From contig JAIETM010000008.1 in NCBI GenBank assembly GCA_019745155.1, positions 124,001 through 188,000 of the forward strand: 64,000 bases of DNA, written 5' to 3'. The translations under genes and the position numbers were made by a program. The notes below the pieces were generated by a model. That model did no database searches, had not been told where the DNA came from, and saw nothing but the letters and a program-made list of their open reading frames with translations. The DNA comes from Chitinophagaceae bacterium (GTDB lineage: Bacteria > Bacteroidota > Bacteroidia > Chitinophagales > Chitinophagaceae). Within the stretch, counting starts at the first letter, position 1. Each line of letters starts with the position of its first letter. Below, piece by piece: positions 30,466-45,162 of the stretch.

Positions 30466-30493
30466 AAAAAAGCCCCGACAATCCTGTCGGGGC
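30466..30493 (-). terminator. trp operon attenuator terminator (3:4 hairpin)
   Basis: On the minus strand GCCCCGACA-GGAT-TGTCGGGGC is a perfect 9-bp stem followed by TTTTTT. It lies between the trpL leader ORF and trpE; no minus-strand gene ends upstream, so it is not an ordinary 3' terminator. Its 5' arm CCCCGAC can instead pair with GTCGGGG at 30529-30535, which overlaps the end of the leader ORF, giving a mutually exclusive antiterminator. Confidence 0.85.
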
Positions 30494-30521
30494 CTATATT
30501 TTGAAAGTACTGGCAATGCCA

Positions 30522-30581
30522 TTACAATCCCCGACTGAGGTTTGAATGCCACCACCAATGCTTATTGATCTGAATTTTCAT
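30522..30581 (-). CDS. trpL: trp operon leader peptide TrpL (19 aa, WWW)
   Basis: This short ORF reads MKIQINKHWWWHSNLSRGL, followed by TAA. Three consecutive TGG codons (30549-30557) are extremely unlikely by chance and match the leader-peptide design of trp attenuators. The ATG lies 6 nt after a -7 box, so the transcript probably starts almost at the AUG. The last codons (Ser-Arg-Gly) overlap the antiterminator strand GTCGGGG. A ribosome stalled at the Trp codons would leave that strand free, while one that reaches the stop would cover it and allow the terminator to form. The peptide itself likely has no other function. Confidence 0.88.
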   Translation of the reverse strand: MKIQINKHWWWHSNLSRGL

Positions 30582-30587
30582 GAATTG

Positions 30588-30618
30588 CAATATTACAGCA
30601 TCCCCGAATACAACCAAA
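30588..30618 (-). promoter_or_regulatory. Promoter of the trp operon (TTTG-N19-TAATATTG)
   Basis: On the minus strand a -33 TTTG (30615-30618) is followed after 19 nt by TAATATTG (30588-30595), one mismatch from TAnnTTTG. The spacing is canonical for Bacteroidota. The trpL ATG follows by 6 nt. Confidence 0.65.
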
Positions 30619-36031: not shown

Positions 36032-37165
36032 TCATCCTATTACTCCTTTGGTACTGGGCAGGTGATTGCTGAAAGGATCGCGTTTCACTGCCATGCGGAT
36101 AGCTTTCGCAAAGGCTTTGAAGATGGCTTCAATCTTGTGGTGCTCATTATCGCCTTTACAACTAATATTTAGGTTACACTTAGCGGCATCGCTAAAAGAC
36201 TTGAAGAAATGGAAAAACATTTCCGTTGGCATTTCACCAATTTTCTCGCGCTTAAACTCCGCATCCCAAACCAACCAATTACGTCCGCCAAAATCAATCA
36301 ACACTTTGGCTTCTGCTTCATCCATAGGCAAAGCAAATCCATAGCGCTCCATGCCACGTTTATCGCTTAATGCTTTGGCGAATGCTTCACCCAAAGCAAT
36401 ACCAGTGTCTTCTATGGTATGGTGTTCATCTATATGCAAATCACCCTTGGTGGTGATGTTGAGGTCTAACTTACCGTGACGAGCAATCTGATCTAACATA
36501 TGATCAAAGAATCCTAATCCGGTTTGTATGGCTGATTGACCGCTACCATCCAAATTCAAGGAAACATGAATCTTGGTTTCATGTGTATTGCGCTCGTGTG
36601 CTACTTTCCGTAAACCAAGTATGAGGAAACTATAAACCGCTTTCCAATCATTGGTTTCAAAAGCAATCACATCACCAAGTACTGCGCGATGTTCATCAGA
36701 CAAAGGGTGTAATTCCGAAATAAAATAAATTGCTTTGCAACCCAGATTCTTTGCTAATTGAATATCGCTCCAGCGATCACCAATTACATAAGAGTTTGCC
36801 AGATCAAATTTTCCCTGATCGAAAAAATGCCGCAGTAATCCTGTACCTGGTTTGCGTGTTGGTGCATTGTCGGCAGCAAAAGTTCTATCGATGATCATTT
36901 CATCAAACACAAATCCTTCGCCTTCCAGTGTTCGCGTCATCAAGTTATGATAAGGCCAAAACGTTTCTTCAGGATAGGAAGCTGTACCAAGTCCATCTTG
37001 ATTGGTCACCATCACTTTGTAATAATCCATATCCGTAGCAATAGCTGCGAGCGTACTGATGGCACCGGGCACAAAGCTGGTTTTCTCCAGACTATCTACC
37101 TGAAAATCTGTTGGTGGTTCCTGCAGTACAACACCATCTCTGTCGATAAACAATACAGGTTTCAT
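36032..37165 (-). CDS. hisB: Bifunctional histidinol-phosphatase / imidazoleglycerol-phosphate dehydratase
   Basis: The 377-residue protein has an N-terminal HAD phosphatase domain ([14 protein letters not shown], the DxDG nucleophile; [14 protein letters not shown]) and a C-terminal dehydratase domain ([52 protein letters not shown]). It catalyses two steps of histidine synthesis. The C-terminus reads LPSTKGVIG rather than the common LPSTKGVL; the island's last gene stops 2 bp away, so the very end may have been altered when the cassette arrived. Its start overlaps the cytochrome c stop by one base (TAATG). Confidence 0.95.
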
Positions 37166-37572
37166 TACTTGATTTTAGCACGCTGGGCTTTCACCTCAGC
37201 AGGTGTGATAGCAGATGCTTTGTTACCAAAACTGTTTCTGATATAAGTAAGTACATCAGCAATTTGCTGATCGTTCATGTGTGCAAATGATGCCATAGGA
37301 TTGAAATACTCTTCACCATTCACTTCCAAAGGTTCATTCAATCCTTTCAACACGATACCAATCAATCTTGCTTTATCACCAGTTACATAATCTGTTTTAC
37401 CCAAAGGCGGTGTCATACGCGGTGCACCGGCACCATCTGCCTGATGGCACGACATACAATATTGTGCATATAATGCCTTACCTCTTGTAATGCTGGCTGC
37501 ATTCGGCGTTTGCATACTTTGTGATACAATACCAACTGTAAGCAGACTTAAAACAACAATCAACTTGCGCAT
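37165..37572 (-). CDS. Exported c-type cytochrome
   Basis: The 135-residue protein has a signal peptide ([20 protein letters not shown]), one haem motif CMSCH (C39, C42, H43) and a possible axial Met in [10 protein letters not shown], with the closing YIRNSFGN helix typical of class I cytochromes. It lies between the sugar-dehydrogenase-like gene and hisB, with 9-bp and -1-bp gaps, so it is transcribed with his genes. It most likely accepts electrons from the adjacent dehydrogenase. Confidence 0.9.
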
Positions 37573-37581
37573 TAGACGAAT

Positions 37582-38817
37582 TTATTTAGCTGAATAACTA
37601 ATTTTCCAAACATAGCCCTTAGCATCATCTGATACATAGAGCGATCCATCAGGGCCCATTGCCAATCCGCAAGGGCGATGCATGGCATCTCTTGGATTAG
37701 ACACTTTACCCTTTCCCGTAAAACCGTCGGCAAAGATTTCCCAATCGCCTGTAGGTTGACCATTTTTCATTGGCACAAATACCACATAGAAACCTTCCTG
37801 TACTTGTGGATTTCTATTCCAACTACCGTGGAAGGCGATGAATGCACCGTTACGATATTTCTCAGGAAACTGATTACCTGTATAGAACAACAATGCGTTT
37901 GGTGCTAAGTGACCGGGAAAGCCCACCAAAGGTTTGATCGCATCTGGCGCACCTTCTTTTTTACCGTCGCCACCATATTCTGGTGAAAGAATTTTCTTGT
38001 TCTGAAATGGATCCCAATACACATAAGGCCAACCGGCATTATCGCCTTGCTTCACCATATAAAAAGTTTCTGCAGGTAATTCAGCGCCAGCTTTCGCATC
38101 ATAGAGTTCAGGGAAATGCTGATACAACATGTCTCGACCGTGTACGGTCACAAATAATTCATTTACTTCAGTATTCCAATCAAGACCAACTACATTACGC
38201 AAACCAGTTGCATAACGAACACCTTCTGCATAGCTCTGCTCCAATTTATCGGCACGGAATTTCCAGATGCCGCCAGCTGAATCCAGAATTGGACAAGGCA
38301 TCATACCCTTAGAACCTTGCATACGATCGCGCTCCTGGCAAACATTAGAAGGCGCACCAATATTCACGTACAAGTTTCCTTTAGGGTCGATGGCAATTGA
38401 TTTAGAAGCATGCTGACGTCTATCCACCAGACCATACACCACACGCTCAGGCTGATCAGGGTTGACAATATTATTGGCTGCATCTAACTGATAACGAAAC
38501 ACAGCTGAGTTAGAAGATGCGTAGAGATAATTCTTGTGCAAGGCAATGCCTGTACCAATATAGTTACCGAAAGCTAGTGTGTCTTCATACACCCCATCTT
38601 TATCGGCATCGCGCAAGCGAAGAATACCTTTTCCGTAACGCAGGTTCTCTAATTTTAGGTATACATCACCATTACTATGCACAGCAATGTGGCGCACACG
38701 GCCCTTGTCTTTGGTAATATTGGTGATAGCAAATCCTTTAGGCAATTGAATATCTGCCTGCTGTGCAGATGCCTGCAAAGTGATTAGACTAATCAGTGAT
38801 ACGATAATTTTTCTCAT
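37582..38817 (-). CDS. PQQ-dependent sugar dehydrogenase-like beta-propeller (sorbosone/glucose dehydrogenase family)
   Basis: The 411-residue exported protein (signal MRKIIVSLISLITLQASAQ) has the GSDH propeller pattern. Visible motifs are RVRHIAVHSNGDVYL, YATGLRNVVGLDWN, FYMVKQGDNAGWPYVYWDP, FHGSWNRNPQ and a final SLYVSDDAKGYVWKISY. The family oxidises sugars or aldoses with PQQ in the periplasm. The adjacent cytochrome c is a likely electron acceptor. Placement of this pair between hisC and hisB is unusual. The exact substrate and PQQ use cannot be read from sequence. Confidence 0.85.
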   Translation of the reverse strand: MRKIIVSLISLITLQASAQQADIQLPKGFAITNITKDKGRVRHIAVHSNGDVYLKLENLRYGKGILRLRDADKDGVYEDTLAFGNYIGTGIALHKNYLYASSNSAVFRYQLDAANNIVNPDQPERVVYGLVDRRQHASKSIAIDPKGNLYVNIGAPSNVCQERDRMQGSKGMMPCPILDSAGGIWKFRADKLEQSYAEGVRYATGLRNVVGLDWNTEVNELFVTVHGRDMLYQHFPELYDAKAGAELPAETFYMVKQGDNAGWPYVYWDPFQNKKILSPEYGGDGKKEGAPDAIKPLVGFPGHLAPNALLFYTGNQFPEKYRNGAFIAFHGSWNRNPQVQEGFYVVFVPMKNGQPTGDWEIFADGFTGKGKVSNPRDAMHRPCGLAMGPDGSLYVSDDAKGYVWKISYSAK

Positions 38818-38845
38818 TTGCTTTATTTAAGGGGTCACAAATTAC

Positions 38846-39919
38846 TTATTCTGATACAAATCCTTTAGTTGCCAGCCATTCGGCCAAAGCATCAACCAAG
38901 ATCGTATTCTCTTTTTCAGTACCAATGGTGATGCGAAGACAGTCTTCACATAGTTGCACATTACTCCTATCACGCAATACAATGCCTTTGGTTAACAGGA
39001 ATTCATACACTTTTCTTGCTTCTGCTATTTTGACGAGCAAGAAATTGGCATCAGATGCATATACCGTTTCCACTGTCGGCATTTGCTCAAACACTTCTTT
39101 CAAAGCCTCGCGCATAGCCACCAGTTCCTTGATCATATCATTCACCTGCCCTACTTCTTCCAATGCTTTCAGTACCAAGTCTTGCGTAGCTTGATTGATA
39201 TTGTAGGGTGGCTTCACTTTATTCATCACCTCAATAATCTCTTCTGAAGCGAAAGCCATACCCAAACGCAATGCCGCTAAACCCCATGCCTTACTCAATG
39301 TTTGTAGCACCACAAGATTAGGATACTCAGTCAATTCCTGCACAAAACTTTTCTGACGGGAGAAATTGATATAGGCTTCATCAATCACCACAATGCCACT
39401 AAAATTATTCAGCACCGTTTCAATATCCGTTCTGTTCAAAGCATTACCCGTTGGATTATTGGGCGAGCAGAGCCAGATGATTTTGGTATTGGCATCTGTC
39501 AGTTGTTCCAGGTGTGCGAGATTCAATTGAAAATCTGGTAACAGCGGCGCTTTTCTTACTTCCACATCATTGATATTGGCACTTACTTCGTACATGCCAT
39601 AAGTGGGCGGACAAATCACCACATTATCTTTACCCGGCTCACAAAAACAGCGGAATAAAATATCAATACACTCATCGCTGCCATTACCCAGAAAAATATG
39701 CTTTGCATCAATACCTTTTATCTGGCTCAGGGCCGCTTTCACCTGCTGCTGATGCGGATCGGGATAACGGTTATACCATTTTGGCAATGGCGAGCCTAGA
39801 CTATTCTCATTGGCATCGAGAAAAACTTTTGCTTCGCCGGAAAATTCATCGCGTGCAGATGAATACGGAGTGAGCTGTTTAATATTAGGTCTAGTTAATT
39901 TATGTAGATCGAATCTCAT
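38846..39919 (-). CDS. hisC: Histidinol-phosphate aminotransferase
   Basis: The 357-residue class I/II PLP aminotransferase has LDANENSLGSP, LGNGSDECIDILFR, WLCSPNNPTGN, VIDEAYINF and TLSKAWGLAALRLG with the PLP-binding Lys (SKAW). It makes histidinol phosphate from imidazole acetol phosphate. It starts 31 bp after the inserted four-helix-bundle gene, and the sugar dehydrogenase gene follows after 28 bp. Confidence 0.95.
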   Translation of the reverse strand: MRFDLHKLTRPNIKQLTPYSSARDEFSGEAKVFLDANENSLGSPLPKWYNRYPDPHQQQVKAALSQIKGIDAKHIFLGNGSDECIDILFRCFCEPGKDNVVICPPTYGMYEVSANINDVEVRKAPLLPDFQLNLAHLEQLTDANTKIIWLCSPNNPTGNALNRTDIETVLNNFSGIVVIDEAYINFSRQKSFVQELTEYPNLVVLQTLSKAWGLAALRLGMAFASEEIIEVMNKVKPPYNINQATQDLVLKALEEVGQVNDMIKELVAMREALKEVFEQMPTVETVYASDANFLLVKIAEARKVYEFLLTKGIVLRDRSNVQLCEDCLRITIGTEKENTILVDALAEWLATKGFVSE

Positions 39920-39927
39920 GGTAAAGA

Positions 39928-40365
39928 ATTTAGAAGTTAGTAGTTAGAAGCTAGCCAATACTACTACTTTGCATTTTTTGAATATACACTTCCAGCATTT
40001 GGGACACCTCTTCCAATAAATGCATTTGATGATCATCAACAGTATAAGCAAGATCCTTTGCGAGTATCATAAAGTAAGTACACTCTTCAATAGAGCCTTG
40101 AGCAATATTAAAAAACCGCATCTTCTCTGGCTTTGTTTTCTTTTTATATCCTTCAGCAATATTTGCAGCGATTGAGATTGCAGCCCTTCTAAATTGAGGA
40201 ACCAGCACAAACTGCTCTTCTTTTGGAAAATTCTTTGTCATAGTATATACGGCAAGCACAAATTGATGTGCTTTTTGCCATACAATTAGCTCTCGAAAAC
40301 TCTTTGTTGAAGAAACACTCATTGAAAATTTATTTATGTGAAAAGCTAACTACTAGCTTCTAAAT
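39928..40365. mobile_element. IVS-like element: second four-helix-bundle gene with inverted repeat
   Basis: The left arm ATTTAGAAGTTAGTAGTTAG (39928-39947) and the reverse complement of the right arm (40346-40365, ATTTAGAAGCTAGTAGTTAG) match at 19 of 20 positions. The right arm encodes the hisD C-terminus LEASS and its TAG stop. The left arm begins 8 bp before the hisC ATG and is followed by a second TTAGAAGCTAG copy. The arms differ in sequence from those at 22085-22568, so they are element-specific and not a shared transposon end. Confidence 0.6.
39951..40322 (-). CDS. Four-helix-bundle protein (S23/IVS-type), second copy
   Basis: The 123-residue protein has FRELIVWQKAHQFVLAVYTMTK, FPKEEQFVLVPQFRRAAISIAANIAEGYKK and FFNIAQGSIEECTYFMILAKDL, all standard for the family. 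It is shorter than and clearly diverged from the copy at 22135-22536, so the two are not a recent duplication. It lies between hisD and hisC in operon orientation. It is bracketed by a 20-bp near-perfect inverted repeat. Confidence 0.9.
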   Translation of the reverse strand: MSVSSTKSFRELIVWQKAHQFVLAVYTMTKNFPKEEQFVLVPQFRRAAISIAANIAEGYKKKTKPEKMRFFNIAQGSIEECTYFMILAKDLAYTVDDHQMHLLEEVSQMLEVYIQKMQSSSIG

Positions 40366-41638
40366 GCTGTCTTCTAATAATCACCGCTCTCGCATGCGCA
40401 TCCAAACCTTCTGCTTCTGCCATTAATCGAACTGTTTCAGCAATATTGTCCAAGCCTTGCTGACTCAGCTGCTGATAGGTTATCTTCTTCACAAAAGCAT
40501 CCACACTCACACCGCTATAAGCATGCGCAAAACCATTGGTCGGTAAAGTATGGTTGGTACCACTGGCATAATCTCCTACGCTTTCCGGTGAATAATGACC
40601 AATGAAAACAGAACCTGCATTCACAATCTGTTCTGCCACTTCAGCTGCATTATCCATCGCTATAATCAAGTGCTCTGCTGCATAAGCATTCACCAAGGCG
40701 ATTGCTTCTTCTACATCTGGCAAATACACTGCTCTGCTATGCTCCAAGGCTTTTGCAGCCAATGCTTTTCTAGGCAATACTTCCAACTGTTTGGCTACAG
40801 CATCCAGTACACGTGGTATCATCTGCTGATCAGTTGACACGAGTAATACCTGACTATCCGCACCATGTTCTGCCTGACTTAATAAATCTGCAGCTACAAA
40901 ATCAGGATTGGCGCTGGCATCTGCAAGTACACATACTTCACTTGGGCCTGCTGGCATATCAATAGCTAAGCCTTCCATCTGTACTAATTGTTTGGCACAA
41001 GTGACATATTGATTACCCGGACCAAAAATCTTATAGACTTTAGGTACAGTTCTAGTGCCATAAGCCATCGCCGCAATCGCTTGCACGCCACCAATCTTGT
41101 AGATATGTGTTACACCTACCAACTTGGCAGCATAAATGATCGCAGGGTGTAACTGACCGTTCTTATCTGGCGGAGAACAAAGCACAATTCTTTTGCATCC
41201 CGCTAAGTGTGCGGGAATACCCAGCATCAAAACAGTAGAGAACAAAGGCGCTGTACCACCGGGAATATAAATGCCGACTGTTTCAATACCTACAGATTTA
41301 CGCCAGCAACGCACACCCGGCATAGTTTCTATCACAGATGGTGCTTGTAATTGCGCTTGGTGAAAAGTAGTGATATTTTCTGCTGCTGTTTGAATCGCTG
41401 TTTTCAGCTCATGTGATAAAGCCGCTTCGGCTTCAATCAATTCATTCTCATCAAAGGCAAAATCTTTTAGGAGAACACTATCAAATTTTTCTGTGTATTC
41501 AATGATTGCTTCATCCCCTCTTACACGCACATCATCCAATACTGTGCGCACAGTAGCACGCAAAGCGGTATCATCCATTACCGGTCTTGAGATAATGGAA
41601 GCCCATTCTTGCTGCTTTGGCTGTTCAAATATTTTCAT
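40346..41638 (-). CDS. hisD: Histidinol dehydrogenase
   Basis: The 430-residue protein has YIPGGTAPLFSTVLMLGIPA, GGVQAIAAMAYGT, KIFGPGNQYVT, DMPAGPSEVCVLAD, AEHGADSQ (zinc-binding region), and catalytic His in AAEHLII and SGTNHTLPT. It oxidises histidinol to histidine with two NAD. The final residues LEASS and the TAG stop are formed by the inverted repeat arm of the downstream element, so the true ancestral end may differ. It is separated from hisG by 4 bp. Confidence 0.95.
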   Translation of the reverse strand: MKIFEQPKQQEWASIISRPVMDDTALRATVRTVLDDVRVRGDEAIIEYTEKFDSVLLKDFAFDENELIEAEAALSHELKTAIQTAAENITTFHQAQLQAPSVIETMPGVRCWRKSVGIETVGIYIPGGTAPLFSTVLMLGIPAHLAGCKRIVLCSPPDKNGQLHPAIIYAAKLVGVTHIYKIGGVQAIAAMAYGTRTVPKVYKIFGPGNQYVTCAKQLVQMEGLAIDMPAGPSEVCVLADASANPDFVAADLLSQAEHGADSQVLLVSTDQQMIPRVLDAVAKQLEVLPRKALAAKALEHSRAVYLPDVEEAIALVNAYAAEHLIIAMDNAAEVAEQIVNAGSVFIGHYSPESVGDYASGTNHTLPTNGFAHAYSGVSVDAFVKKITYQQLSQQGLDNIAETVRLMAEAEGLDAHARAVIIRRQHLEASS

Positions 41639-41642
41639 ACAA

Positions 41643-42512
41643 CTAGATGATCATTTTTTCAATTGGTACCACTAGAATACCCTCTGCACCTGCTGCTTTC
41701 AACTGCTCAATAATATCCCAGAATTCATTTTCATTCAACACACTATGTACACTACTCCAACCGGGCTCTGCTAATGGCAATACGGTAGGGCTCTTCATAC
41801 CGGGTAATAACGAAATAATCTGCTGGAGGTTCTCATTAGGCGCGTTTAATAGAATGTATTTGTTGTTCTTCGCCTTCTTTACTGCCTGCATGCGGAATAT
41901 GAGTCGCGCCAATAATTGTTCCTGTGCATCGCTCAATTGTTGATTCTTAATGAGTACTGCCTGCGACTGCAGAATCGTTTCCACTTCTTTGAGCCCATTC
42001 ATGAACAAGGTAGAACCACTGCTCACCAAATCACAAATAGCATCGGCCAATCCAATACCTGGGGCAATTTCTACACTACCACTGATCTCATGGATTTCCG
42101 CGCTAACCCCCTGCTCTTTCAAAAAAGCTTGGGTGATCACCGGATAGGAAGTGGCAATCTTCTTCCCCTGCAAGTATTGTACATCAGGATAAGCTTCCCC
42201 TTTTCTTACAGCAATGCTCAAACGGCATTTACCAAAACCAAGCTTTTCTGCAACAGCTACTTTCTTCTGCTTTTCATACACCACATTCTCACCTACAAAA
42301 CCAATATCTGCTACACCATCTTCTACATACTGAGGAATATCATCATCGCGTAGGAAGAAAAGCTCTAGCGGAAAATTGCTCGCCTCTGCCTTCAATTTGT
42401 TTACTCCATTTGAGATATCCACCCCACATTCCTTCAACAAACGAATAGAATCATCGTGTAAACGACCTGATTTCTGAATTGCCAGTCTGAGTTTTACCTG
42501 TTCATTGCTCAT
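41643..42512 (-). CDS. hisG: ATP phosphoribosyltransferase, long form
   Basis: The 289-residue protein has LRLAIQKSGRLHDDSIRLL, DDIPQYVEDGVADIGFVGENVV, KIATSYPVITQAFL and SGSVEIAPGIGLADAICDLVSSG. A C-terminal HisG_C regulatory domain (MKSPTVLPLAEPGW, EGILVVPIEKMI) binds histidine for feedback inhibition. It carries out the first committed step of the pathway. Upstream lies a His-rich leader peptide and attenuator, so the first his unit (hisG-D-C-B) appears to be controlled at both enzyme and transcript level. Confidence 0.96.
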   Translation of the reverse strand: MSNEQVKLRLAIQKSGRLHDDSIRLLKECGVDISNGVNKLKAEASNFPLELFFLRDDDIPQYVEDGVADIGFVGENVVYEKQKKVAVAEKLGFGKCRLSIAVRKGEAYPDVQYLQGKKIATSYPVITQAFLKEQGVSAEIHEISGSVEIAPGIGLADAICDLVSSGSTLFMNGLKEVETILQSQAVLIKNQQLSDAQEQLLARLIFRMQAVKKAKNNKYILLNAPNENLQQIISLLPGMKSPTVLPLAEPGWSSVHSVLNENEFWDIIEQLKAAGAEGILVVPIEKMII

Positions 42513-42529
42513 AGTGTTCGATTGAACGT

Positions 42530-42559
42530 AAAAAAATAGGGCTCACCATTGGTAAGCCC
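42530..42559 (-). terminator. his operon attenuator terminator (3:4 hairpin)
   Basis: On the minus strand GGGCTTACC-AAT-GGTGAGCCC pairs over 9 bp (one T:G pair) and is followed by TATTTTTTT, 18 nt before hisG. Its 5' arm can alternatively pair with GGTAGGCC (42590-42597), located one base after the leader stop codon, to form an antiterminator. Confidence 0.88.
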
Positions 42560-42598
42560 TGTAATACAATCAGATACGCATACAGCATCGGCCTACCG

Positions 42599-42643
42599 CT
42601 AGGGTAAGTTATGATGATGATGTACGTGTGTCTGATTGATCAT
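42599..42643 (-). CDS. hisL: his operon leader peptide HisL (14 aa, five His)
   Basis: The ORF reads MINQTHVHHHHNLP followed by TAG. Four consecutive CAT codons (42611-42622) and one CAC give five His in 14 codons, the hallmark of a his attenuator. CTTACC (42603-42608), within the Asn-Leu-Pro codons, can pair with GGTAGG just after the stop as the 1:2 helix. GGTAGGCC can instead pair with the terminator 5' arm as the 2:3 helix. A ribosome stalled on the His codons would cover strand 1 and favour the antiterminator. The ATG lies 4 nt after the -7 box TATTTTTG, so the leader message is probably leaderless. Confidence 0.9.
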   Translation of the reverse strand: MINQTHVHHHHNLP

Positions 42644-42647
42644 GGCG

Positions 42648-42677
42648 CAAAAATAGGCGAAATAGCTTACCGACAAA
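42648..42677 (-). promoter_or_regulatory. Promoter of hisG-D-C-B (TTTG-N18-TATTTTTG)
   Basis: On the minus strand TTTG (42674-42677) is followed after 18 nt by TATTTTTG (42648-42655), an exact match to TAnnTTTG. It ends 4 nt before the hisL ATG. This is the best complete promoter in the window. Confidence 0.75.
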
Positions 42678-42741
42678 ATTTTATCAGCGGTTTCGCAGCT
42701 CAATCTGCAGTCCTTACCTTACGCATCTTAAAAAAATTGCC

Positions 42742-45162
42742 ATGAGAAACATACCCCGTTTGCTCGCCTTATGCATGTTTGGTTTGCTTAGCATAAGTGC
42801 ACTTGCACAAGATGCTATCGGCTATCAAACACCGCCTCAAGTTATTGCTGACTTATTATTAGCTAAACCAACACCAGGTGTAAGTATTGACGACAAAGCA
42901 CATTGGATGTTGCTGATTGAACGTAACAGCTACCCAACTGTTGAAGAATTGGGCCAGCCTGAAGCACGCATTGCGGGCTTGCGTATCAACCCAATGAATT
43001 TCTCTCCTAGCAGACAGACCTACATCAATAATTTCTCACTGAAAAATATCAAGGAGAACACAACTATTCAAGTGAAAGGATTACCTGCAGGTATGTTGGC
43101 TAGTCAGCCATCTTGGAATCCATCTCAAACCAAGATCGCATTCACTAATTCTACTGGTAGTCGTGTTGACTTATATGTAATTGATGTTGCTACTCAAACA
43201 GCCAAGAAAGTAAACCAACAACCATTGAATACCGTATTGGGTGGTGCTTTTTCTTGGGTGGATGACAACACGCTTTTGTATAAAACTACTTTACAGCCTG
43301 CTTCTGCGGCACCTAAGCGTCCGATTACTCCAAAGGGTCCAGCTATGCAGGAAAACTATGGCAAAGCAGCACCTATCAGAACCTATCAAGACTTGATTAA
43401 GAGCCCATACGATGAACAATTATTCGAGTTTCTTGCTACTGCACAATTGGTAAAAAATGTGAATGGTGTTGAAACCAAAATTGGTAAGCCTGCACTCTAT
43501 ACTATGACAAGCATCTCACCTGATAAGAACTACATGATGGTGCGTACTATCCGTAAGCCATTCTCCTACCTGATGCCAGCGCAGTTATTCCCATCTACTG
43601 TTAGTATTACTGACATGAATGGAAAGACCGTAAAAGTTTTAGCGGAATTGCCTTCAGGCGAAGGTTCTCCATCTGGATTCGATAACGTACAAGATGTGGT
43701 GCGTGGTTTCGACTGGCGTGATGATGCACCTGCAACCATTACATGGTGCAAGCCTTTGGATAGCGGTATGATCAGAAGCAAGGTAGAATTCCATGATGCT
43801 GTGTATGCGCTCAGTGCTCCTTTCACCGGTGAAGCCAAAGAACTTTTCAAAACACAATGGCGTTTCCGCGGTATTAACTGGGGTAACGAATCATTGGCTT
43901 TGGTAAGCGAAGGTTTAGCAGGCAGACAAAGAGCACGCATCCACAAATACAATCCATCTACCGGTGCATTGGAGTTGATGCTGGAAAGAGCTACTACAGA
44001 TGCCTACAGCGATCCTGGTCAACCTTATACTTCAAGAAACAAATGGGGCCGTCAGGTAATCACAACTGTTGACAATGGCAGCAAACTGCTGATGATTAAC
44101 AATACAGGTTCATCACCTAAAGGCGATTTGCCTTTCTTAGCAAAGTTCGATTTAAGCTCCAAGCAAAGCGAAATCATCTGGCGTTGTACCGAAGGACAGT
44201 TTGAATCTATTGTAGACGTATTAGACGCAGACAAACTCACACTGGTAACTAGAAGAGAAACGCAGAAAGATGTACCCAACTATTACATCAAGGATTTGAA
44301 AGCACGTATTGCTGATAGAGCATTGACAAATTTCAGCAATCCCTATCCTGCATTAGAAGGTATTACCAAAGAAAAAATAAAGTACAAGCGCGCTGATGGT
44401 GTTGACTTGACTGGCGATTTATACTTACCTAAAGGATATGATCCCAAAAAAGACGGCCCACTGCCAGTTTTCATGTGGGCTTATCCAAGAGAGTTCAACT
44501 CTGCTGCTGATGCTGCTCAGGTAAGAGGTTCTAAAGATCGTTTTACGACAATCAGCTGGGGTGGACCAGTCTTCTGGGTAACACAAGGTTATGCGGTATT
44601 AGACAATGCAGAAATGCCTATCGTAGCAACCAGCGCTGATAAAAAACCAAATGACGATTTTATTCAGCAATTAAAACTGAATGCTGAAGCTGCAGTTAAT
44701 AAACTAGCAGAAATGGGTGTGGGTGATAAAAACCGTGTAGCAGTTGGCGGACATAGCTATGGCGCTTTCATGACTGCACACTTACTCTCACACACCAACT
44801 TATTCAAAGCAGGTATTGCCCGCAGTGGTGCTTACAATCGTTCACTGACGCCATTTGGTTTCCAGAACGAAGACAGAACCTACTGGCAAGCACCAAACTT
44901 ATATTTCGATATGAGTCCGTTCAGTTATGCCAATAAAATTAAAACACCCATTTTGCTGGTTCATGGCGAGATGGATGATAATCAGGGCACCTTCCCTATC
45001 CAAAGTGAGCGTTTCTACAATGCCATTAAAGGACATGGTGGCACATCACGATACATTGTATTGCCTTACGAAGCCCATGGCTATAGAGGCAAGGAAAACC
45101 TACTGCATATGTTGTGGGAACAACACCAGTGGTTAGAGAAATATGTAAAGAATGCGAAATAA
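42742..45162 (+). CDS. S9-family serine peptidase (prolyl-oligopeptidase fold)
   Basis: The 806-residue exported protein (signal MRNIPRLLALCMFGLLSISALAQ, cleaved near residue 23) has an N-terminal beta-propeller-like part and a C-terminal alpha/beta-hydrolase domain. The catalytic Ser is in GGHSYGAFM (Ser672), the Asp in HGEMDDNQG (about 745-746) and the His in EAHGYRG (His779). The GHSYGAFM pattern is seen in plant and bacterial glutamyl endopeptidase-like S9D members. It probably cleaves peptides in the periplasm or outside the cell. It is monocistronic, divergent from the his leader and followed by a hairpin terminator. Confidence 0.9.
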   Translation: MRNIPRLLALCMFGLLSISALAQDAIGYQTPPQVIADLLLAKPTPGVSIDDKAHWMLLIERNSYPTVEELGQPEARIAGLRINPMNFSPSRQTYINNFSLKNIKENTTIQVKGLPAGMLASQPSWNPSQTKIAFTNSTGSRVDLYVIDVATQTAKKVNQQPLNTVLGGAFSWVDDNTLLYKTTLQPASAAPKRPITPKGPAMQENYGKAAPIRTYQDLIKSPYDEQLFEFLATAQLVKNVNGVETKIGKPALYTMTSISPDKNYMMVRTIRKPFSYLMPAQLFPSTVSITDMNGKTVKVLAELPSGEGSPSGFDNVQDVVRGFDWRDDAPATITWCKPLDSGMIRSKVEFHDAVYALSAPFTGEAKELFKTQWRFRGINWGNESLALVSEGLAGRQRARIHKYNPSTGALELMLERATTDAYSDPGQPYTSRNKWGRQVITTVDNGSKLLMINNTGSSPKGDLPFLAKFDLSSKQSEIIWRCTEGQFESIVDVLDADKLTLVTRRETQKDVPNYYIKDLKARIADRALTNFSNPYPALEGITKEKIKYKRADGVDLTGDLYLPKGYDPKKDGPLPVFMWAYPREFNSAADAAQVRGSKDRFTTISWGGPVFWVTQGYAVLDNAEMPIVATSADKKPNDDFIQQLKLNAEAAVNKLAEMGVGDKNRVAVGGHSYGAFMTAHLLSHTNLFKAGIARSGAYNRSLTPFGFQNEDRTYWQAPNLYFDMSPFSYANKIKTPILLVHGEMDDNQGTFPIQSERFYNAIKGHGGTSRYIVLPYEAHGYRGKENLLHMLWEQHQWLEKYVKNAK

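What the first reader, a model, noticed from the sequence alone, without database searches (positions are those of the whole stretch)
42530..42677. Histidine attenuator with an HHHH leader peptide upstream of hisG
Seen in sequence: a 14-codon ORF with five His codons (MINQTHVHHHHNLP). Strands CTTACC (42603-42608), GGTAGGCC (42590-42597) and the terminator GGGCTTACC/GGTGAGCCC (42539-42559) form three mutually competing helices (1:2 of 6 bp, 2:3 of 8 bp with one G:U, 3:4 of 9 bp with one G:U) followed by TATTTTTTT. Strands 1 and 3 share CTTACC, exactly as an attenuator requires. The promoter TTTG-N18-TATTTTTG is complete.
Basis: partly seen in the sequence, partly recalled or inferred. Interest (0 to 1): 0.85.

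Follow-up and report, generated by a model that had tools for sequence, protein, structure and literature searches.

The report
Histidine-sensing RNA switch before hisG
The start of this bacterium's histidine-making operon carries a tiny histidine-rich reading frame and a folding RNA that very probably switch the operon off when histidine is plentiful, a textbook device that here seems, unusually, to begin at the first base of the message.

Summary
It is best read as a ribosome-mediated his attenuator: promoter motif, 14-codon leader MINQTHVHHHHNLP, three mutually exclusive helices, terminator, U-tract, hisG. At least 5 His in 8 codons within 200 nt of hisG occurs in 70 of 110 near relatives and 54 of 120 class-wide regions, and in no shuffle. 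The terminator covaries (7 of 9 pairs, 0/500 shuffles). The antiterminator pairs in 94% of cells but is nearly invariant, so its covariation is inconclusive; outside the family, 44 of 85 regions show it above shuffles. Ribosome-masked folding gives the expected switch, but only before strand 4 is made. New here: the leader AUG is the predicted transcription start (predicted 5'UTR under 10 nt in 90 of 108 relatives, or 82 with a stricter start choice), and the leader stop codon lies inside the antiterminator strand in 76 of 101, though not in the window. Structured hisG leaders in Flavobacteriaceae are already in print. Nothing was tested at the bench. Verdict: reader right; a new member of a known kind.

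The parts
42674..42677 (-). -33-like TTTG element
   Evidence: sequence; motif described for Bacteroidetes in PMC7366714 (passages)
42648..42655 (-). -7 element TATTTTTG (TAnnTTTG); ends 4 nt before the leader ATG
   Evidence: box with a start 1-20 nt after it in 100 of 108 near relatives
42599..42643 (-). leader ORF MINQTHVHHHHNLP plus stop TAG; A of ATG = predicted +1
   Evidence: spacing rule from PMC9723704 (passages)
42611..42622 (-). four consecutive CAT (His) codons, the presumed sensor
   Evidence: His-rich leaders in relatives
42603..42608 (-). strand 1 CTTACC, within the last leader codons
   Evidence: at least 5 of 6 pairs with strand 2 in 71 of 99 aligned sequences (counts)
42590..42597 (-). 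strand 2 GGTAGGCC; pairs with strand 1 or strand 3
   Evidence: at least 7 of 8 pairs with strand 3 in 95 of 99 (counts)
42581..42585 (-). CTGTA, 5' arm of an inner helix of the antiterminator
   Evidence: constrained folding; not tested for covariation
42559..42563 (-). TACAG, 3' arm of that inner helix
   Evidence: constrained folding; not tested for covariation
42551..42559 (-). strand 3 GGGCTTACC (5' arm of the terminator)
42539..42547 (-). strand 4 GGTGAGCCC (3' arm of the terminator)
   Evidence: 99.5% of cells paired, 7 of 9 pairs with changes on both sides
42530..42538 (-). U-tract TATTTTTTT
41643..42512 (-). hisG, first gene below the attenuator
   Evidence: TIGR00070 E 7.8e-58, TIGR03455 E 1.2e-30
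40346..41638 (-). hisD
   Evidence: TIGR00069 E 1.3e-156
38846..39919 (-). hisC
   Evidence: TIGR01141 E 3.6e-111
36032..37165 (-). hisB (bifunctional)
   Evidence: NF003937 E 4e-155

Best explanation
It is a ribosome-mediated transcription attenuator of the his operon. RNA polymerase starts at or next to the leader AUG, so a ribosome can load on the very 5' end of the transcript. If charged tRNA-His is scarce, the ribosome stalls on the CAU codons and covers strand 1, leaving strand 2 free to pair with strand 3 (antiterminator); the terminator does not form in time and hisG is transcribed. If His-tRNA is plentiful, the ribosome reaches the stop codon and covers strand 2, so 3:4 forms a terminator before hisG. 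If the leader is not translated, 1:2 forms inside a long hairpin that also covers the leader start, and again the terminator wins. Shown here: anatomy, conservation, terminator covariation, computed state-dependent folding. Inferred: transcription start, leader translation, stalling, termination, histidine response. The ribosome footprint used (about 10 nt beyond the A-site codon) is recalled general knowledge.
For: Sequence and gene context. Folding significance. His-rich segment upstream of hisG in 109 of 110 near-relative regions at a lenient threshold (at least 3 His in 8 codons; one of them, L102, is too far from hisG to count); within 200 nt, shuffles reach that lenient threshold in 8.0% of cases, 4 His in 0.45% and 5 His in none. 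Terminator in 101 of 108. Helix counts on 99 distinct sequences. Constrained folding before strand 4 is made: P(1:2)=0.98 with no ribosome; P(2:3)=1.00 with the ribosome at any of the four CAU codons; neither at the stop codon. Strand 2:3 complementarity better than shuffles (p<=0.05) in 92 of 108 near relatives (L102 included) and 44 of 85 class-wide regions tested, in 21 of 35 families, with unlike strand sequences in different families.
Against: Antiterminator covariation is not above shuffles on the score (80 of 500 as high) or on further pair types (462 of 500), and most slid versions hold as many or more double changes; RNAalifold predicts only the terminator. 1:2 has under 5 of 6 pairs in 28 of 99, partly through misalignment, and most slid versions again hold more double changes. 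With full-length RNA the terminator is favoured whatever the ribosome does. 41 of 85 class-wide regions show no significant 2:3 complementarity by my method, among them all tested members of f22, f24, f30, f34 and f70; nine of nine f60 regions had no terminator by my criteria; five of five f63 regions had no His-rich leader. The relatives share ancestry and are not independent. No expression data.
Confidence: 0.93

Rival explanations
1. A constitutive partial terminator with read-through; the His run is a coincidence.
For: The terminator is the most stable fold of the full RNA in every state; terminator-like sites are common by chance.
Against: His-rich leaders upstream of hisG in two samples, none in shuffles at the strict threshold; leader end, strand 2 and terminator conserved together in near relatives.
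Confidence: 0.02
2. The leader controls translation of hisG, or feeds ribosomes to it by reinitiation, rather than termination.
For: Leader genes close to structural genes have been proposed to raise expression by reinitiation (PMC4833913, passages).
Against: The leader stop is 86 nt from the hisG ATG, far beyond the 10-14 bp peaks named in those passages; a U-tract directly follows the hairpin and the hisG start lies outside it.
Confidence: 0.03
3. The leader responds to something else that a His-rich peptide could sense, such as metal ions or general translation speed.
For: Poly-His peptides bind metals (recalled); not excluded by sequence.
Against: In the same genome the trp, phe and ilv genes carry leaders rich in Trp, Phe/Tyr and Ile/Val (seen by eye, not tested against shuffles), as expected for amino-acid sensing.
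Confidence: 0.02

Closest known systems
Enterobacterial his operon attenuator (hisL; Rfam his_leader, accession recalled as RF00514; details recalled)
   Same: His-rich leader peptide, alternating helices, intrinsic terminator before hisG
   Different: Three helices in about 110 nt; Bacteroidota-type promoter motif; AUG at predicted +1; no Rfam match at the site
Structured 5' element upstream of hisG in Flavobacterium psychrophilum, conserved in other Flavobacteriaceae (PMC9723704, passages)
   Same: Same phylum and gene; the authors report strong clues for leader-peptide attenuation upstream of amino-acid operons, without Rfam matches
   Different: I could not see that paper's structures (supplements), so the comparison of strands and 5'UTR is open. 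Other families sampled here have different strand sequences and often longer predicted 5'UTRs
Conserved Cys-rich upstream ORFs in mycobacteria (PMC4633059, passages)
   Same: Candidate amino-acid attenuators discussed together with leaderless genes
   Different: Another phylum, cysteine; called candidate and speculative there

Membership tests
Ribosome-mediated his attenuator | Short leader ORF with a run of His codons directly upstream of a his operon | tested here: met
Ribosome-mediated his attenuator | Intrinsic terminator between leader and first structural gene | tested here: met
Ribosome-mediated his attenuator | Antiterminator (2:3) that excludes the terminator | tested here: met
   94.3% of cells paired versus 22.6-49.2% when slid; 44 of 85 class-wide regions above shuffles. 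Covariation itself inconclusive
Ribosome-mediated his attenuator | Anti-antiterminator (1:2) | tested here: inconclusive
   at least 5 of 6 pairs in 71 of 99; 86.3% of cells; favoured with no ribosome in the window
Ribosome-mediated his attenuator | Leader translated, and read-through responds to His-tRNA charging | not testable with these tools
   needs bench work
Rfam his_leader covariance family | Match to the curated model | tested here: not met
   no Rfam match up to E=5 in window 41500-43500; none at gathering threshold in 18 loci
T-box riboswitch | Match to the curated Rfam model | tested here: not met
   (that Rfam holds the T-box is recalled)

The most novel reading that the evidence does not exclude
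A leaderless attenuator design: the transcript begins at the AUG of the sensor peptide, so initiation needs no 5'UTR in a phylum that does not rely on Shine-Dalgarno signals, and in most near relatives (76 of 101) the leader stop codon is itself the core of the antiterminator strand (GG-TAR-GC), so finishing translation hides exactly the switch strand. This built-in coupling would explain why the strand sequences are almost frozen, and would be one form of a phylum-wide attenuation regime for several amino acids that Rfam does not hold.
Probability: 0.45. Interest if true: 0.55.

Novelty: new member of a known kind. Interest (0 to 1): 0.42.

Why it matters
My paper searches found little on how Bacteroidota regulate histidine synthesis; in the passages I saw, a paper on the his genes of this superphylum mentions attenuation only for E. 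coli and Salmonella (PMC8305728). The element is a specific, easily tested switch. The same principle recurs in many, not all, families sampled, with different RNA sequences. It also raises a testable question: how a ribosome starts on a message with no, or nearly no, 5'UTR in bacteria that do not rely on Shine-Dalgarno signals.

Tried and rejected
Covariance search with model R1. In the window's own genome the his leader is the only strong hit (E 5e-10); five weak hits have E 0.6 to 7, and of the three that I read by eye (L233-L235) none showed such a leader; L236 and L237 were not read. In 395 genomes of the phylum 46 had a match at E<=0.01, at 47 places. I fetched 14 of the 47: 8 lie before a gene that looks like hisG by eye, 1 before a phenylalanine 4-monooxygenase, 1 before ilvD, and 4 have no such leader and look like plain terminators (for the two named enzymes). 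So R1 is not specific, and I did not use its counts as prevalence.

RNAalifold on A1 recovers only the terminator. The first leader scan is void for 16 of the 110 loci, which lay on the other strand; one search replaces it. Seven of 108 leaders had no terminator by the first criteria; with looser ones 108 of 109 did, L102 included. L061 and L076 were dropped as duplicates before A1; L028 (no leader) and L102 (far from hisG) were left out. A narrow scan (box at most 15 nt before an ATG) near two homoserine dehydrogenase genes found no leader; it would also have missed the ilv leader.

Rejected: T-box or other known riboswitch (no Rfam match); reinitiation feeder (leader stop 86 nt from hisG).

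Full report
WHAT IS THERE. On the minus strand the order is: TTTG 42677-42674, 18 nt, TATTTTTG 42655-42648, four bases, ATG at 42643, 14 codons MINQTHVHHHHNLP, TAG 42601-42599, strand 2 GGTAGGCC 42597-42590, strand 3 GGGCTTACC 42559-42551, strand 4 GGTGAGCCC 42547-42539, TATTTTTTT 42538-42530, hisG ATG 42512. Strand 1 CTTACC (42608-42603) lies in the last codons of the leader. Downstream genes are hisG, hisD, hisC and hisB, with a four-helix-bundle protein gene between hisD and hisC and two other genes between hisC and hisB.

CHANCE. The terminator hairpin and the whole leader fold far better than dinucleotide shuffles (z -4.8 and -6.5, 0 of 200 each). The number of promoter-like or terminator-like matches in the region is not above shuffles. 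At least 5 His in 8 codons within 200 nt upstream of hisG occurs in 70 of 110 near-relative regions and 54 of 120 class-wide regions, and in 0 of 2,200 and 0 of 2,400 shuffles; with at least 4 His, 90 of 110 and 87 of 120, against 0.45% and 0.21% of shuffles; with at least 3, 98 and 102, against 8.0% and 6.2%.

NEAR RELATIVES. hisG was found in 35 of 59 genomes, the window's own included (30 loci kept), and the best 80 of 338 matches came from a genome collection. Record titles there are mostly Chitinophagaceae, Sediminibacterium or other Bacteroidetes; L102 is titled Beijerinckiaceae. A few genomes are in both sets. With loci turned to one strand, 109 of 110 regions (400 nt) hold a His-rich segment at the lenient threshold; L028 has none, and L102's lies 356 nt away without a start, so I set it aside. 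Seen by eye, the commonest leader form is M, a few residues, H-x-HHHH-x-LP-x-G. 101 of 108 have a hairpin with a T-run. Of the 101, 88 carry GGTARGY near the leader end, and in 76 its TAR is the leader stop codon. In the window the stop comes 6 nt earlier; the same-genus relative G002 (hisG 98% identical) reads CTTACCCAAGCGGTAGGCC where the window reads CTTACCCTAGCGGTAGGCC.

HELICES. On 99 distinct aligned sequences (two duplicates dropped), 3:4 pairs in 99.5% of cells (22.9-65.0% when slid), with changes on both sides at 7 of 9 pairs (82 cells; 0 of 500 shuffles reach it). 2:3 pairs in 94.3% of cells (22.6-49.2% when slid), but only 2 pairs (3 cells) show double changes, which slid versions equal or exceed in most cases, and the covariation score is matched by 80 of 500 shuffles. 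So within these relatives 2:3 is strongly conserved without independent covariation. 1:2 pairs in 86.3% (22.0-53.3% when slid), 3 pairs with double changes (28 of 500 shuffles as high). RNAalifold finds only 3:4. The likely reason (inference): strand 2 must match strands 1 and 3, strand 3 must match 2 and 4, and strand 1 and the stop codon are coding.

ACROSS THE CLASS. 127 of 295 class genomes have a hisG match. I read 120 upstream regions from 43 families: 27 loci and 93 fetched. The other 7 genomes were already held (4) or hold only fragments (3). 109 of 120 have a His-rich segment at the lenient threshold; 87 of these 109 have a terminator by my criteria. Leader and strand sequences differ between families: GGCTTACC/GGTAAGCC in many, CCCGTYTGAG with a strand 2 like CTCARGCGA in f74 and several others. 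2:3 complementarity beats 100 shuffles at p<=0.05 in 92 of 108 near relatives and 44 of 85 class-wide regions tested, in 21 of 35 families tested. Against: 0 of 3 in f22, 0 of 5 in f24, 0 of 5 in f30, 0 of 3 in f34 and 0 of 2 in f70; nine of nine f60 regions have His-rich leaders but no terminator by my criteria; none of the five f63 regions has a His-rich leader. Leaders before genes that look like hisG also occur in genomes outside the class (L298, L299, L301, L302, L303).

NEAR-LEADERLESS START. In F. psychrophilum the TAnnTTTG box occupies -12 to -5 (PMC9723704, passages), so +1 is the fifth base after the box; in the window that is the A of the leader ATG. Of 108 near relatives, 100 have a box and an in-frame ATG or GTG; spacing is 4 nt in 18 and 7 nt in 31, and the predicted 5'UTR is under 10 nt in 90 of 108. 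That count takes the first start after the box, which favours short 5'UTRs; taking the ATG nearest the His run instead gives 82 of 108. In shuffled upstream sequence a box ends 3-13 nt before the start in 0.8% (175 of 21,200). For comparison, about 3.7% of B. thetaiotaomicron 5'UTRs are under 10 nt (PMC7366714, passages) and 5.5% of F. psychrophilum mRNAs are leaderless. In 400 kb of the window's genome, 41 of 313 long ORFs have a box within 70 nt, 13 of them within 10 nt, 5 at exactly 4 nt; reversed and altered motifs give 10, 17 and 13 of 313. In the two other genomes sampled (200 kb each) 4 genes each lie at exactly 4 nt. So leaderless genes seem to exist as a minority, and his leaders are enriched. 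Among 89 class leaders outside the family with at least 4 His, 58 have a box and start, 29 of them with a predicted 5'UTR under 10 nt. All this is prediction from a motif, not a mapped start.

MECHANISM. With the ribosome masked (leading edge taken as 10 nt beyond the A-site codon; recalled) and strand 4 not yet made, folding gives 1:2 with no ribosome (P 0.98), 2:3 with the ribosome at any of the four CAU codons (P 1.00), and neither with the ribosome at the stop. With the full RNA the terminator is favoured in all states (P 0.87-1.00), so the switch must act during transcription.

SAME GENOME. trpE in the window (leader MKIQINKHWWWHSNLSRGL, 30581-30522), pheA (MQQFIRHSWFYFGYFFFYFNRNGRVVLATI, L231) and the ilv genes (Ile/Val-rich leader before a gene that looks like ilvE, upstream of ilvD) carry what looks like the same kind of device. 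These were read by eye and not tested against shuffles or relatives. The ilv leader's box is 17 nt from the ATG, so it is not leaderless.

KNOWN OR NEW. Attenuation by leader peptides in this phylum is already reported as strong clues for F. psychrophilum, with structured hisG leaders in Flavobacteriaceae (PMC9723704, passages), and sORFs reminiscent of attenuating leader peptides are noted for B. thetaiotaomicron. My searches of the paper library listed no paper whose title or abstract start describes a leaderless his attenuator in Bacteroidota; of the papers I looked into, I saw passages only. Subscription papers are mostly not held, and one relevant comparative paper (doi 10.1134/S0026893310010164) could not be read, so an earlier description is quite possible. 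Rfam has no match.

Noticed in passing
window 30466-30595 (minus strand), before trpE ATG 30442: Looks like a trp attenuator: leader MKIQINKHWWWHSNLSRGL, terminator GGCCCCGACA...TGTCGGGGC with T-run, and GTCGGGG in the leader end complementary to the terminator's 5' arm; box TAATATTG (one mismatch) 6 nt before the ATG.
   Followed up: partly
L231 1330-1490 (G000:C9, before pheA): Phe/Tyr-rich leader MQQFIRHSWFYFGYFFFYFNRNGRVVLATI 7 nt after TATATTTG, with a terminator and a complementary GGCCGGG: looks like a phe attenuator with a near-leaderless leader.
   Followed up: partly
L245 (minus strand; G000:C12, before an ilvE-like gene): Ile/Val-rich leader ending in Gly codons (GGAGGTGG) complementary to the terminator arm CCGCCTCC: looks like an ilv attenuator; box 17 nt before the ATG.
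   Followed up: partly
   Followed up: partly
   Followed up: partly
L212, L214, L217, L218, L219, L221, L222, L224, L225 (family f60): Nine hisG upstream regions with His-rich leaders but no terminator by my criteria; the switch there may work differently, or use weak A/T-rich hairpins.
   Followed up: no
L144, L150, L155 (family f35), L189 (f69): Leaders ending in ...HHSS with complementary pyrimidine and purine bases on either side of the stop codon; no terminator by my criteria in the three f35 regions and only a weak one in L189.
   Followed up: no
window 37165-40322: The his genes are interrupted by a four-helix-bundle protein gene (39951-40322), a gene with a PVC-type heme-binding-domain match (37582-38817) and a cytochrome-c-like gene (37165-37572).
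   Followed up: no
G000:C1 1-400000 (L246-L265), G189:C1 and G097:C1 1-200000 (L266-L285): TAnnTTTG boxes end exactly 4 nt before 5, 4 and 4 long ORFs, suggesting a small leaderless class of genes.
   Followed up: partly
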